From a virus, in the IMG/VR virus record IMGVR_UViG_3300036792_000058, positions 1-55,069 of that record: a stretch of 55,069 nt of DNA, one strand, 5' to 3'. The notes beneath the pieces are model-generated. The model was given only the letters and a program-made list of their open reading frames with translations, made no database searches and was not told the DNA's origin. Positions 32,640 through 38,006 of this stretch are shown here, one piece after another. Made by a program: the position numbers and the translations under genes. Position 1 is the stretch's first letter; every line of letters starts with the position of its first letter.

Positions 32640-32760
32640 TGGAGCCGGAAGGTACCTGGTTATCCTTCTGAACAAAGGCCCGTAGGTGGTGGAACTCCAC
32701 TGAACCCGCAAGGGTGTGCTCACTAAGCAGGGTAAACGGTCAGGTCCGTACTACGCCCCA
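32640..32760 (+). ncRNA. Y RNA 1 (Ro-binding stem plus tRNA-like insert)
   Basis: Short outer helix TGG/CCA. The 5' strand AGCCGGAAGG is followed by inner helix ACCTGG (32654) with TCAGGT (32740), then TTATC; the 3' strand is TACTACGCC. The insert holds a T-arm-like hairpin (GTGG, loop TGGAACT, CCAC at 32686-32700), a GCAA-capped hairpin (32704-32715) and TGCT/AGCA (32717-32729). This is the same arm order as in units 3, 6 and 7. The outer helix is weaker than in other units. Confidence 0.65.
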
Positions 32761-32775
32761 ACAACTACATACTTC

Positions 32776-32875
32776 GAGCGAGCCGGACAAGTGCCGGTTA
32801 TCTGCGGGAGATCGGAGGCGGCCCAGATACTTGCTGGGTGCGCACGTAAAACCCGGAACTTCCTTACGCCCGCTC
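32776..32875 (+). ncRNA. Y RNA 2
   Basis: Outer helix GAGCG/CGCTC (32776 and 32871). 5' strand AGCCGGAC; inner helix AAGT-G-CCGG with CCGG-A-ACTT (one mismatch); then TTATC. 3' strand CTTACGCC. The insert has CCCAG/CTGGG with a seven-base loop, closed by TGCG/CGCA, and lacks a clear T-arm. The outer helix differs in sequence from the other units but still pairs. Confidence 0.75.
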
Positions 32876-32878
32876 ACA

Positions 32879-32950
32879 TGCCAGGTAGCCCAAGTAGAGG
32901 CAGCCTCCAATAAGAGGAACTAAGTGGCGGTGTCGAATCCGCCCCTGGCA
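32879..32950 (+). tRNA. Degenerate tRNA or tRNA-like RNA
   Basis: 72 bases with a perfect 7-bp acceptor (TGCCAGG/CCTGGCA), TA at 8-9, and arms in normal tRNA order. It departs from a working tRNA in three places: the D-loop lacks the GG pair, the CCTC/GAGG anticodon hairpin has only six loop bases (CAATAA), and the T-loop has an extra base (TGTCGAAT). No anticodon can be assigned. Either a decayed tRNA between Y RNA genes or a tRNA mimic. Confidence 0.5.
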
Positions 32951-32970
32951 CTAGACAACTAAACAGCGTG

Positions 32971-33101
32971 ACAGTGAGCCGGATGTTGCCCGGTTATCAA
33001 TGGTTCGATTCCACTACCAGGCTCCGCTTCGGCGTACGCCTGGTGCGCAAGGCGCGCATCCCTCGCAAGAGGGAGACCCGGACACGCCTTATGCCCACTG
33101 T
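32971..33101 (+). ncRNA. Y RNA 3 with permuted tRNA-like insert
   Basis: Outer helix ACAGTG/CACTGT. 5' strand AGCCGGAT; inner CCGG/CCGG with outward pairs; TTATC; 3' strand CCTTATGCC. The insert shows T-arm TGG-TTCGATT-CCA (33001-33013), a 7-bp acceptor-like helix ACCAGGC/GCCTGGT (33016 and 33038) capped by CGC-TTCG-GCG, then a D-arm-like GCGC/GCGC hairpin (33045-33057) and a GCAA-capped hairpin. T-arm, acceptor, D-arm is the order of a circularly permuted tRNA. Confidence 0.8.
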
Positions 33102-33109
33102 GCCTCTTC

Positions 33110-33176
33110 GGTGCGAGCCGAATGCGAGCGTTATCCTTCTAAGATAAAATGCTCAAAGTAGTCTTACGCCCGCACC
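33110..33176 (+). ncRNA. Y RNA 4, short form without tRNA-like insert
   Basis: Outer helix GGTGCG/CGCACC (6 bp). 5' strand AGCCGAAT, TTATC and 3' strand CTTACGCC are kept. Inner helix GAGCG/TGCTC. Only about 20 bases lie between the two inner strands, so this 67-base RNA has the Ro-binding stem but no tRNA-like module. Confidence 0.7.
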
Positions 33177-33188
33177 TACAACTTCAGA

Positions 33189-33267
33189 GCAGAGCCGGAA
33201 CAATGGGGTTACCCTTACCAAGGTCGAAAGATCAAGGATATTTCCCCGCCGTGACCTTACGCCCTGC
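33189..33267 (+). ncRNA. Y RNA 5, short form
   Basis: Outer helix GCAG/CTGC. 5' strand AGCCGGAAC, inner GGGG/CCCC, TTACC in place of TTATC, and 3' strand CCTTACGCC. The small insert has a CCTT/AAGG hairpin and GGTC-GAAA-GATC, a GNRA-capped hairpin. Weaker pairing than the others, but all signature blocks are in register. Confidence 0.6.
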
Positions 33268-33286
33268 CCACTAACTCAATAGCGTT

Positions 33287-33437
33287 GCGGAGAGCCGGAG
33301 TTGTCCGGTTATCACTTGTTAAACTGGGTGTTGCGGGTTCAAATCCCGTCCGGGAGCCTCAGAACTTCCGGTAGCTCAAGCTGGCAGAGCACTAGTCTGA
33401 GTCCCGAAAGGGAGCCGGCGGCATCTACGCCCTCCGC
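33287..33437 (+). ncRNA. Y RNA 6 containing a full circularly permuted tRNA module
   Basis: Outer helix GCGGAG/CTCCGC, 5' strand AGCCGGAG, inner CCGG/CCGG, TTATC, 3' strand CTACGCC. The insert folds as a permuted tRNA: ACTGG (33323, anticodon-stem 3' strand), T-arm GCGGG-TTCAAAT-CCCGT (33333-33349), acceptor 3' strand CCGGGAG (33350), an eight-base linker, acceptor 5' strand CTTCCGG (33365), TA, D-arm GCTC/GAGC with GG in its loop (33374-33390), and CTAGT (33392), which pairs with ACTGG. A TCCC-GAAA-GGGA hairpin follows. The Ro stem joins at the open anticodon end. Confidence 0.85.
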
Positions 33438-33449
33438 GCCCACAGCAGC

Positions 33450-33563
33450 GAGACGAGCCGGATGTACCTGGTTATCCTTGCGAAGAATGTGGTTCGAATC
33501 CACCGGGCCTTCGGGCTTAGGGAGTGTGGCTTCTCCAGTTCCAGGTATGCTTACGCCCGTCTC
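33450..33563 (+). ncRNA. Y RNA 7, nearest to the Ro gene
   Basis: Outer helix GAGACG/CGTCTC, 5' strand AGCCGGATG, 7-bp inner helix TACCTGG/CCAGGTA (33465 and 33541), TTATC, 3' strand GCTTACGCC. The insert has T-arm GTGG-TTCGAAT-CCAC (33489-33503), a shortened acceptor hairpin capped by TTCG (33507-33516) and D-arm GGAG/CTCC with GG in the loop (33521-33536). It has the cleanest pairing and lies 26 bases before the Ro start codon. Confidence 0.85.
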
Positions 33564-33589
33564 AACTAACACACAGGAAGGAACACCCG

Positions 33590-35197
33590 ATGGCCGACGC
33601 ACTCCGCTCGTTCAGGCACGGCGTTACCCCGCAGACCGAGCAGGCCCGTCCCGACGAAGTGAAGAACAACGCCGGCGGCTACGTGTTCGAGGTTGACGAC
33701 CGCACCCGGCTCAACCGCTTCCTGACCCTCGGCACCGAGGGCGGCACGTACTACGTGGACGAGCAGAAGCTCACCCGTGACAACGCCAAGCTCGTCGTCA
33801 AGATGAGCGAGGGCAGCGACCGCAAGCTGATCATGGACACCGTGATGGTGTCGCACGACGGGCGTGCCCCGCGTAACCAGCCTGCCCTGTTCGCCATGGC
33901 GGCTGCGGCCGGACTCGGCGACACTGCCTACCGGCACGAGGCGCTGGACTTCCTGCCCCAGGTCGCGCGCACCGGCTACCACTTCCTGGTCTGGGCCGAG
34001 TACATCGAGATGTTCCGTGGCTGGGGCCCGCAACTCGTCAAGGGCGTCGCGAACTGGTACAAGATCCAGTCGCCGGAAGACCTCGCCTACCAGGTGCTGA
34101 AGTACAAGCAGCGCGAGGGCTGGTCGCAGCGCGACCTCATGCGGCTGGCCAATGGTGCCGGCGGCCTCAAGCACGGGGCCACCTCAGCGCAGGCGGCTGT
34201 GTTCGATTACGTCATGAAGGGCCACTTCGACCCTGACGCGCTGCCGCCGGTCATCGAGGCCGCCCACAAGGCGCACGAGACCCGCGACGTTCGTGAGTGG
34301 GTACGGCTGATCGAGCGCAACCGCTCGCTGTCGTGGGAGATGCTGCCCTCCGAGGCGCTGGCCAAGGCTGAGGTGTGGGTCGCGCTGATCGACAACGGGA
34401 ACCTCCCGCTCGGCGCGCTGCTGCGCAACCTGTCGCGGCTGACCCGGCTGGGTGTCATCGCCCCGATGTCCACGTACAACGCGTGGATCGCGGCCCTGCT
34501 CACTGACAAGACGGCGATCCTCAAGGCGCGCATCCACCCGATCCAGGTGCTGCTGGCGCTCAAGACCTACGCCCTGGGGCACTCAATCCAGGGCACCTCA
34601 CGGTGGCTGCCGGTCCCGCAGGTCACTGACGCGCTGAACGAGATGTTCTACCTCGCGTTCGGCAACGTGGTGCCCTCGGGCAAGCGCACGCTGATCTGCC
34701 TGGACGTGTCCAGCTCGATGAACAACACCGTCTCCGGCTACGCGTTCAAGGCGCGGGAGATCTCGGCTGCCATGGCCCTGATCACGATGAAGACCGAGCC
34801 GCAGTACGCGGCGATGGCCTTCTCCCACCAGTTCGTGCCGCTAGGCATCTCCCCCGCGCAGCGCCTGGACGACGTGGTGAACTCGATCTCCAACCTGCCG
34901 TTCGGCCGGACTGACTGCGCGCTGCCCATGGCGTGGGCCCAGTACAACAACCTGGCGGTGGACACCTTCCAGGTCTGGACGGACAACGAGACCTGGTACG
35001 GGCCCAACGGCCACCCGCACGAGGCGCTGAAGAGCTACCGCCGGGCCACCGGCATCAACGCCCGGCTCCAGGTGGCTGCGGTCACCCCGACGCAGTTCTC
35101 GATCGCGGACCCGCTGGACCCCGGTCAGCTCGACGTGTCCGGGTTCGACGCGGCGGTGCCGAAGCTGATGGCCGACCACGCTCGCGGAGACATCTGA
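33590..35197 (+). CDS. rsr: Ro60/Rsr homologue (TROVE and vWA domains)
   Basis: 535 residues from ATG 33590 with AGGAAGGAA upstream. The N-terminal ~360 residues have the Ro HEAT-repeat ring pattern (LNRFLTLGTEGGTYYVDEQ, YHFLVWAEYIEMFRGWG, WSQRDLMRLANG). A von Willebrand A domain follows with an intact MIDAS (LDVSSSMN, Asp372). Ro binds misfolded RNAs in its central hole and Y RNA on its outer face. In bacteria Rsr works with Y RNA and exoribonuclease. The adjacency to a Y RNA array fits an Rsr ribonucleoprotein. Confidence 0.95.
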   Translation: MADALRSFRHGVTPQTEQARPDEVKNNAGGYVFEVDDRTRLNRFLTLGTEGGTYYVDEQKLTRDNAKLVVKMSEGSDRKLIMDTVMVSHDGRAPRNQPALFAMAAAAGLGDTAYRHEALDFLPQVARTGYHFLVWAEYIEMFRGWGPQLVKGVANWYKIQSPEDLAYQVLKYKQREGWSQRDLMRLANGAGGLKHGATSAQAAVFDYVMKGHFDPDALPPVIEAAHKAHETRDVREWVRLIERNRSLSWEMLPSEALAKAEVWVALIDNGNLPLGALLRNLSRLTRLGVIAPMSTYNAWIAALLTDKTAILKARIHPIQVLLALKTYALGHSIQGTSRWLPVPQVTDALNEMFYLAFGNVVPSGKRTLICLDVSSSMNNTVSGYAFKAREISAAMALITMKTEPQYAAMAFSHQFVPLGISPAQRLDDVVNSISNLPFGRTDCALPMAWAQYNNLAVDTFQVWTDNETWYGPNGHPHEALKSYRRATGINARLQVAAVTPTQFSIADPLDPGQLDVSGFDAAVPKLMADHARGDI

Positions 35198-36785: not shown

Positions 36786-37057
36786 CTGATTACATCGAGG
36801 GGCCCGCCAAGGGCAAGGTCCAGTTCATCAAGAACGCGGGCGGCATCCAGCTTGAGATGGTGCCCAGTCGCACGGCACCCACCGGCACGTACGTCTGCGT
36901 GGTGGACAACGGGCACTTCGAGGCCGCCGCCATAGCCAAGACCGCAGACGACCTGCAAGCGTTCAACGTTCCCACGGACGACCGCCCCAAGTGGTGGCTG
37001 CACGTGGACGACGAAACCCTCAAGAAGCTCCTGTACGAGGGAGGCAGTGCCCCGTGA
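36782..37057 (+). CDS. Hypothetical protein
   Basis: 91 residues, ATGA overlap with the previous stop. Basic start (GKVQFIKNAGGIQLEMVPS), a central strand-turn (YVCVVDNGHFEAAAIAKT) and an acidic Trp-containing end (KWWLHVDDETLKKLLYEG). No family recognised. Confidence 0.6.
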   Translation: MTDYIEGPAKGKVQFIKNAGGIQLEMVPSRTAPTGTYVCVVDNGHFEAAAIAKTADDLQAFNVPTDDRPKWWLHVDDETLKKLLYEGGSAP

Positions 37058-37146
37058 AGCACATCACCGAGCTGATCGCGTTCATCGCGGTCCTGACATT
37101 CGTCTTCCTGCTGGTCTTCCTGGCCCACAATCACTGGCACTTCTGA
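37054..37146 (+). CDS. 30-residue membrane peptide
   Basis: GTG overlaps the previous stop and its own TGA overlaps the next ATG. Almost all one TM segment (~6-24, LIAFIAVLTFVFLLVFLA) with a His/Trp end (HNHWHF). Coupling at both ends supports it being translated. Confidence 0.55.
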   Translation: MKHITELIAFIAVLTFVFLLVFLAHNHWHF

Positions 37147-38006
37147 TGAAGGAACACTACCGCCCGAAGCAGGAGAAGCGGTCGCTGGACAAGCACGCTA
37201 CCCCGTGGCACAAAGAGGTAGCCGAGCGGGGGACGATCCTGCTCACCGAGGTGGGCTCGGGCCTGCACGGCACGTCTGTCTCTGACCAGGACGACCGCGA
37301 CGAGATGGGCGTGTGCATCGAGCCGCCGGATGCCGTGATCGGCTTCAAGAGCTTCGAGCAGTACGAGTGGAAGACCGCCTGGGAGCGCGAGGGGATGCGC
37401 GCCAACCGCTCCGGTCCCGGTGACGTGGACCTGGTGGTCTACAGCCTCCGCAAGTGGATGCGGCTGGCGATGAACGGCAACCCCACCGTGCTGCTGATGC
37501 TGTTCGCCCCCAGTAACAAGATCGTCCGGCAGTCGGTCGAGGGCATCGAGCTGCGCCGGATGATGCCGCAGTACATCCTGAGCCAGCTCGCGGGCCAGCG
37601 CTTCATCGGCTACCTGCACAAGCAGCGTGAGAACCTGCTGTCTCACAATGGCAAGGGCCGGGACTGCACGCGGCCGGAGCTGATCGAGAAGTACGGCTTC
37701 GACACCAAGTTCGCCGGGCACATGATCCGGCTGGGCATCCAGGGGCTGGAACTTCTGAACACGGGCAAGATCACGCTGCCGATGACCTCGGCCGACGCCT
37801 ACCTGATCAAGGCGATCCGCACCGGGAACTACAAGATGGACGAGTGCCTGGCCATGGCAGAGATCCTGGAGGAAGACCTGGTTACCCTGATGGCCTCCGG
37901 CAAGTCCCCGCTGCGGCCGGAACCTGCCTACGAGGAGATCGACAAGTGGCTGGCGGCCATCTACCAGTGGCGCTGGACAACGGACGCAATCAACCAGGAG
38001 GAATGA
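37146..38006 (+). CDS. RlaP-like nucleotidyltransferase (DNA polymerase beta superfamily)
   Basis: 286 residues from ATG 37146. GSGLHGTSVSDQDDRDEMGV (~37-56) matches the GS...D-x-D nucleotidyltransferase motif as seen in the RlaP family, where the name means RNA ligase-associated protein. DVDLVVYSLRKWMRLAMNGNP and the HMIRLGIQGLELLNTG helix also fit that family. It lies 2 kb after the Ro gene, so a role in RNA end repair or tailing is an inference. Confidence 0.7.
   Translation: MKEHYRPKQEKRSLDKHATPWHKEVAERGTILLTEVGSGLHGTSVSDQDDRDEMGVCIEPPDAVIGFKSFEQYEWKTAWEREGMRANRSGPGDVDLVVYSLRKWMRLAMNGNPTVLLMLFAPSNKIVRQSVEGIELRRMMPQYILSQLAGQRFIGYLHKQRENLLSHNGKGRDCTRPELIEKYGFDTKFAGHMIRLGIQGLELLNTGKITLPMTSADAYLIKAIRTGNYKMDECLAMAEILEEDLVTLMASGKSPLRPEPAYEEIDKWLAAIYQWRWTTDAINQEE

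What the first reader, a model, noticed from the sequence alone, without database searches (positions are those of the whole stretch)
33287..33437. Y RNA 6 carries a complete circularly permuted tRNA cloverleaf
Anticodon-stem 3' strand ACTGG, T-arm GCGGG-TTCAAAT-CCCGT, acceptor 3' strand CCGGGAG, an eight-base linker, acceptor 5' strand CTTCCGG, TA, D-arm GCTC/GAGC with GG in the loop, then CTAGT, which pairs with ACTGG. All four tRNA helices form, but the gene starts and ends at the anticodon, where the Ro stem is attached. Bacterial YrlA RNAs are known to contain tRNA-like domains; a near-intact permuted tRNA suggests how such domains arose.
Basis: seen in the sequence. Interest (0 to 1): 0.92.

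Follow-up and report, generated by a model that had tools for sequence, protein, structure and literature searches.

The report
Phage Y RNA with permuted tRNA
Next to its Ro60 gene this phage carries a small RNA whose body is a complete tRNA with its order rotated, and comparison with some 160 relatives shows this is the normal build of a known RNA family (YrlA-type Y RNAs) rather than a one-off, with a hint that many members also keep a tRNA anticodon loop.

Summary
At 33323-33396 all four tRNA helices pair in the permuted order described, between Ro-binding strands, in the sixth of seven Y RNAs upstream of a phage Ro60 gene. Re-joined at 31/32 with nothing added, ARAGORN calls tRNA-Asn(GUU); in native order it finds nothing. 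It is not chance: a covariance model built from 40 other Y domains finds it at 60.9 bits (E 1e-17). But it is ordinary for its family: about 160 distinct domains beside Ro60 genes share the build, and Y6 ranks 44th and 63rd among viral and bacterial matches. The permuted tRNA-like fold of YrlA RNA is published. Y6 resembles other Y RNAs more than any tRNA, so it does not show how such domains arose. Going further, the tertiary 15-48 pair covaries (92% versus 50% shuffled), and many relatives keep a 7-base anticodon-type loop in exact tRNA register, with the anticodon stem split between nt 28 and 29. That arm rests on covariation only (folding gives it about 0.1 probability), and I could not read the primary YrlA papers to see whether it is described. 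Most likely function: tRNA-mimic effector end of a Ro60 RNP. New member of a known kind.

The parts
33287..33313 (+). Ro60-binding 5' strand of Y6: GCGGAG-AGCCGGA...CCGGTTATC
   Evidence: Sequence; GCGGAG pairs with CTCCGC 33432-33437 in the folds; a GTTAYC-type motif recurs upstream of the domain in 143 of 156 relatives; the Ro stem of a related phage Y RNA (L012) weakly matches the nematode Y-type RNA family RF01656
33316..33322 (+). TTGTTAA: seven letters in the register of tRNA positions 32-38 (anticodon loop, U33, A37, A38) kept on the 3' half
   Evidence: YTNNNRA at this exact offset in 75 of 156 relatives, 8 or fewer at any other offset; re-joined at 31/32 ARAGORN reads tRNA-Asn(GUU)
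33323..33327 (+). Anticodon stem 3' strand (39-43) ACTGG
   Evidence: Pairs with CTAGT 33392-33396, 5/5
33333..33349 (+). T-arm GCGGG TTCAAAT CCCGT
33350..33371 (+). Acceptor stem, 7 bp (CCGGGAG / CTTCCGG), closed by the 8-nt linker CCTCAGAA
   Evidence: acceptor pairs 2-7 are 80-89% paired versus 42-61% shuffled in 133 domains picked without using pairing
33374..33390 (+). D-arm GCTC AAGCTGGCA GAGC with G18G19; A15-U48 tertiary pair
   Evidence: 15-48 covaries, 92% GC/AU versus 50% shuffled in 157 domains
33392..33396 (+). Anticodon stem 5' strand (27-31) CTAGT
33402..33413 (+). TCCC-GAAA-GGGA hairpin between the anticodon stem and the 3' Ro strand
   Evidence: Read from sequence; four pairs form in the cloverleaf-enforced fold
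33425..33437 (+). Ro60-binding 3' strand CTACGCCC-TCCGC
   Evidence: Sequence and fold
32640..33566 (+). Array of seven Y RNAs: 32640-32757, 32779-32875, 32967-33108, 33110-33178, 33186-33269, 33285-33438 (Y6), 33448-33566; ends approximate
   Evidence: Shared GAGCCG(G/A)A ... GTTAYC ... acgcc-type motifs; the third lacks an anticodon arm and the seventh keeps T-arm, acceptor-like and D-like hairpins
33590..35197 (+). Ro60 protein gene (TROVE + vWA_Ro60); ATG at 33590
   Evidence: Pfam PF25045 E 4e-57 and PF05731 E 2e-37; 344 phage records hold a homologue

Best explanation
Y6 is a YrlA-type Y RNA. Its ends form the stem that the co-encoded phage Ro60 protein should hold. Its other end is a circularly permuted tRNA, opened at the anticodon (31/32) and closed at the acceptor, which should fold into a tRNA-like L. 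Shown by sequence and comparison: identity, helices, tertiary 15-48 pair, and that this is the standard build of the family. Inferred from the literature: the RNA sits on Ro60 and the tRNA-like elbow is the effector end that recruits or competes for tRNA-binding proteins, as D. radiodurans Y RNA tethers Ro60 to the exonuclease PNPase. During infection the RNP probably redirects structured-RNA turnover; a decoy role against tRNA-cutting host enzymes is the main alternative. Confidence below is for identity and architecture; the tether function alone I would put near 0.45.
For: Ro60 gene directly downstream. Rfam YrlA matches in the same order, 35.2 bits, E 1.2e-5. Model R1 built without the window: 60.9 bits, E 1.3e-17, next best match in the window 15.3 bits. 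163 matches of at least 45 bits (some near-duplicate loci left out) in 121 sequences, nearly all Ro60 loci. Covariation: 217 two-sided changes versus 62.6 shuffled; acceptor and T-stem pairing holds in 133 domains chosen without using pairing. Tertiary: A14 157/157, GG in D loop 155/157, 15-48 GC 91 / AU 54 of 157, 0 of 2000 shuffles. Literature: YrlA has D-, T- and acceptor-like arms, is modified by DusA and TruB, and is part of the Rsr-PNPase machine (PMC8394870); permutation (PMC11472068).
Against: Y6 is below Rfam's gathering score (35.2 versus 69), but so are all 11 Ro-phage records tested. Thermodynamic folding of the whole RNA prefers another fold by 6.5 kcal/mol and gives the Y6 T-arm and acceptor only about 6% probability. 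No expression, binding or probing data. No promoter or terminator of simple type was seen.
Confidence: 0.9

Rival explanations
1. Decoy or sensor: the permuted tRNA, with its anticodon-type loop, draws or blocks host anticodon nucleases during infection, and damage is dealt with by the co-encoded RNA-repair nucleotidyltransferase RlaP.
For: Many relatives keep a 7-nt YUNNNRA loop and a covarying split anticodon stem; an RlaP gene lies 2 kb downstream of Ro60 and RlaP is predicted to restore bases lost to anticodon nucleases (PMC7824862); competitive inhibition by YrlA was proposed in PMC7790460.
Against: Salmonella YrlA is reported not to be a substrate of the anticodon nuclease (PMC7790460); in Y6 the loop letters are not closed into a loop; no RtcB or RNA_ligase-domain protein found in the window; also present in bacterial Ro60 loci, so not only a phage matter.
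Confidence: 0.2
2. A tRNA gene captured recently into a Y RNA, so that Y6 is a fresh intermediate showing how such domains arise.
For: Re-joined, it is read as tRNA-Asn(GUU), and its best tRNA matches are tRNA-Asn.
Against: Y6 is closer to other Y domains (best 58, median 50) than to tRNAs (best 50, median 40); equally complete domains are the rule.
Confidence: 0.05
3. A permuted tRNA gene that is processed into a working tRNA, as in some algae and archaea.
For: Same order (3' half, linker, 5' half), full cloverleaf.
Against: Flanked by Ro-binding strands, one of an array of seven Y RNAs, no CCA in the linker CCTCAGAA; family linkers as short as 3-4 nt.
Confidence: 0.02
4. Chance or an alternative fold: the cloverleaf is not formed and the minimum-energy fold is the real one.
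For: MFE -68.0 versus -61.5 kcal/mol with cloverleaf enforced.
Against: Covariation in relatives, slid controls drop from 97% to 35-49% paired; conserved tertiary pair; held-out model hit.
Confidence: 0.05

Closest known systems
YrlA, bacterial Y RNA-like A (Rfam RF02553; Salmonella structure PDB 6CU1)
   Same: Same order T-arm, acceptor, loop, acceptor, UA, D-arm between Ro-binding strands; next to a Ro60 gene
   Different: Scores below the Rfam gathering score; 5-bp anticodon stem with nt 26 and 5-nt variable loop, where the Rfam model has a 4-bp closing stem; anticodon-loop letters kept in register
Circularly permuted tRNA genes (red algae, some archaea; from general knowledge)
   Same: 3' half precedes 5' half with a linker joining the acceptor ends
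   Different: No sign of processing to a tRNA; carried on a Ro stem
tmRNA and other tRNA mimics
   Same: tRNA-like fold in a non-coding RNA, modified by tRNA enzymes (for YrlA, PMC8394870)
   Different: No open acceptor end, no reading frame; permuted
D. radiodurans Y RNA (Rsr-PNPase machine)
   Same: Ro60 partner RNA with a Ro stem and an effector end
   Different: Its PNPase tether was shown by experiment; here it is only inferred

Membership tests
YrlA-type bacterial Y RNA | Encoded beside a Ro60/TROVE gene | tested here: met
   Ro60 gene at 33590-35197, PF25045 and PF05731
YrlA-type bacterial Y RNA | Ro-binding stem motif at the two ends | tested here: met
   GCCGGA...GGTTATC / ACGCCC, shared with other units of the array and relatives; binding itself not tested
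YrlA-type bacterial Y RNA | tRNA-like effector end in permuted order | tested here: met
Rfam RF02553 | Reaches the curated gathering score of 69 bits | tested here: not met
   35.2 bits; none of 11 Ro-phage records reaches it. So not a formal RF02553 hit; filed as a YrlA-type RNA by architecture
YrlA-type bacterial Y RNA | Modified by DusA/TruB; effector end bound by PNPase or similar | not testable with these tools
   Reported for YrlA in PMC8394870
tRNA | Cloverleaf with conserved core residues | tested here: met
   After re-joining, ARAGORN calls tRNA-Asn(GUU); A14, A21, G18G19, A15-U48
tRNA | Open acceptor end that can take CCA | tested here: not met
   Acceptor closed by an 8-nt linker without CCA
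Permuted tRNA gene | Processed and ligated to a tRNA | not testable with these tools
   No RtcB or RNA_ligase domain in the window; Ro strands argue against

The most novel reading that the evidence does not exclude
In many Y RNAs of actinobacteria and their phages the mimic is a whole tRNA including the anticodon arm: a 5-bp anticodon stem with a 7-nt YUNNNRA loop, assembled across the chain break between nt 28 and 29 (two outer pairs from the D side, three inner pairs local), so that the Ro60 stem is inserted into the anticodon stem. Window Y6 is a variant opened at 31/32. Such RNAs could serve as complete tRNA decoys or sensors for anticodon nucleases.
Probability: 0.35. Interest if true: 0.65.

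Novelty: new member of a known kind. Interest (0 to 1): 0.42.

Why it matters
It settles that a complete permuted tRNA is common, not an oddity, in Ro60-associated Y RNAs of actinobacteria and phages, and it adds tertiary-pair covariation as sequence evidence for a tRNA-like L. If the anticodon arm is real and undescribed, it makes testable whether these RNAs engage anticodon nucleases or tRNA-reading enzymes, a possible reason why so many phages carry Ro60. It also explains some tRNA annotations in phage records that are really Y RNAs.

Tried and rejected
Rfam gathering-level scan and ARAGORN on the native window (nothing). Recent capture from a tRNA (rejected on identities). Working permuted tRNA gene (rejected: Ro strands, linker, no CCA). 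Anticodon-loop letters as a plain artefact of the Ro motif: not fully excluded, since window Y4 has such a hairpin without a tRNA domain, but the exact register and covariation argue against it. Thermodynamic folding as proof of the anticodon arm: fails, mean probability about 0.1 for inner and outer pairs in 92 domains, while T, acceptor and D arms reach 0.56-0.69. Primary papers on YrlA (Chen 2014, Wang 2018, Sim and Wolin 2018) are not in the library. No named phage is close to the first 24 kb of the window. Relatives by taxonomy could not be drawn for a virus record.

Full report
What is there. The window is a 55,069-base IMG/VR virus record. A Ro60 gene (TROVE and Ro60 vWA domains) runs from 33590 to 35197. 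Upstream, 32640-33566, lie seven units that share GAGCCG(G/A)A, GTTAYC and ACGCC-type motifs, the Ro-binding strands of Y RNAs. A related Y RNA of Gordonia phage Cashline matches Rfam YrlA over its full length (42 bits) and, below threshold, the nematode Y-type RNA family RF01656 through its Ro stem. The finding concerns the sixth unit.

Check of the observation. All four helices are present at the stated places with 21 of 21 pairs (three G-U). In native order ARAGORN finds nothing in the window. Re-joined at 31/32 with no letter added inside the domain, Y6 reads as tRNA-Asn(GUU). A scanner for permuted cloverleaves gave 111 hits scoring at least 44 on the Ro strand of 181 sequences (1.42 Mb, mostly Ro60 loci) against 0 on the reverse strand and 0 in Markov sequence; Y6 scores 61, the best 65.

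How ordinary it is. I collected Ro60 loci from 19 named phages, 83 viral loci and 80 genome loci (a few duplicate one another). Of the 111 domains, 99 pass ARAGORN when de-permuted, 0 in native order, 11.8 on average with mismatched halves. A covariance model R1 from 40 domains, window left out, finds Y6 at 60.9 bits, E 1.3e-17, with the next window match at 15.3 bits. In viral loci Y6 is 44th of the listed matches, in genome loci 63rd; the weaker matches in these lists include ordinary tandem tRNAs. Leaving out some near-duplicates, 163 matches of at least 45 bits lie in 121 sequences, 156 of them distinct. Rfam's own YrlA model has the same order of elements, and circular permutation of Y RNA against tRNA is published (PMC11472068). 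So Y6 is an average member of a known kind.

Is it a real tRNA core? In 133 domains chosen only by T-loop and D-arm sequence, acceptor pairs 2-7 are 80-89% paired against 42-61% when shuffled, and pair 1 is 92% against 87%. On the 40-domain alignment, chosen with pairing and so biased, two-sided changes number 217 against 62.6 shuffled, and sliding the partners drops pairing from 97% to 35-49%. A test that played no part in choosing the domains: the tertiary pair 15-48 is G-C in 91 and A-U in 54 of 157 domains, 92% against 50% shuffled, 0 of 2000 shuffles; A14 is 157/157, A21 154/157 and GG in the D loop 155/157. Y6 has A15-U48.

The anticodon arm. Immediately before nt 39, relatives carry YTNNNRA in 75 of 156 cases at the exact register of tRNA 32-38, and 8 or fewer at every other offset. 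In 92 domains chosen only by U33, R37 and A38, nt 27 and 28 of the D side pair with 43 and 42 in 99% and 97% (48% and 52% shuffled), while local nt 29, 30 and 31 pair with 41, 40 and 39 in 87%, 79% and 85% (64%, 46% and 43% shuffled). Local 27 and 28 are at chance. D-side 29-31 are only modestly above chance (67%, 41%, 54% against 50%, 26%, 47%). The simplest reading is a 5-bp anticodon stem with a 7-nt loop whose chain is broken between 28 and 29. Sixty-four domains have all 2+3 pairs (36 phage and 22 genome loci), and 35, including Y6, have all five pairs from the D side. An alignment of 54 such domains gives the inner hairpin 86% and the outer pairs 98% paired, with slid controls at 28-44% and 18-65%. 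Re-joined at 28/29, 84 of 92 are called tRNAs with varied anticodons; mismatched halves give 36 of 92, and other joining points do about as well, so this is weak evidence alone. Against: ViennaRNA gives the inner and outer pairs only about 0.1 mean probability, and an alternative hairpin with a 10-nt loop is possible in 43 cases. The sequences are related, which makes shuffle controls lenient. I therefore treat the arm as likely but unproven, and I could not read the primary YrlA papers to see whether it is known.

Origin. Y6 shares up to 58 of about 66 positions with other Y domains (median 50) and at most 50 with the tRNAs among 343 collected from the loci (median 40). It belongs to the Y lineage; it is not a fresh capture, and it does not show how the domain arose.

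Function. From the literature, YrlA is modified by DusA and TruB, and Y RNA tethers Rsr to PNPase in D. radiodurans (PMC8394870, PMC7790460). I commit to the same role here: Ro60 RNP with a tRNA-mimic effector end. A decoy role is the main rival, made interesting by the RlaP gene at 37047-38006 and the prediction that RlaP restores bases lost to anticodon nucleases (PMC7824862). No RtcB or RNA_ligase domain was found in the window. Only the architecture is shown; expression, binding and function are inferred.

Noticed in passing
L007:2717-2795 (Mycobacterium phage prophiGD43A-5) and L011:3162-3228 (Microbacterium phage SM23): Annotated tRNA-Thr(tgt) and tRNA-Asn overlap Y RNA domains (R1 matches L007:2759-2826, L011:3196-3263); the annotated tRNAs appear to be Y RNAs, called through their anticodon-type hairpin CTTGTAA / CTGTTAA.
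   Followed up: partly
L019:2137-2345 (Rhodococcus phage Trina): A pseudo 'tRNA-OTHER' feature just upstream of Ro60 covers Y RNA-like sequence.
   Followed up: no
window 32879-32950: A decayed tRNA-like element in normal order between Y2 and Y3: acceptor TGCCAGG/CCTGGCA 7/7, TA, GCCC..GGC and a T-arm-like GGCGG..CCGCC; not called by ARAGORN or Rfam.
   Followed up: no
window 33131-33147: Y4, which has no T-arm, holds TTATC-CTTCTAA-GATAA, a 5-bp hairpin with an anticodon-like 7-nt loop.
   Followed up: no
window 37047-38006: RlaP-family RNA-repair nucleotidyltransferase (PF10127, E 2.9e-28) about 2 kb downstream of Ro60; no RNA ligase domain found in the record.
   Followed up: partly
L017:450-600 (Streptomyces phage Phredrick): A Y RNA about 1.9 kb from Ro60, among tRNA genes, whose minimum-energy fold shows the Ro stem and the whole permuted cloverleaf directly.
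   Followed up: partly
L012:3301-3428 (Gordonia phage Cashline): The Ro stem of this phage Y RNA scores 31.8 bits (cut-off 38) against a nematode stem-bulge RNA family, RF01656.
   Followed up: no
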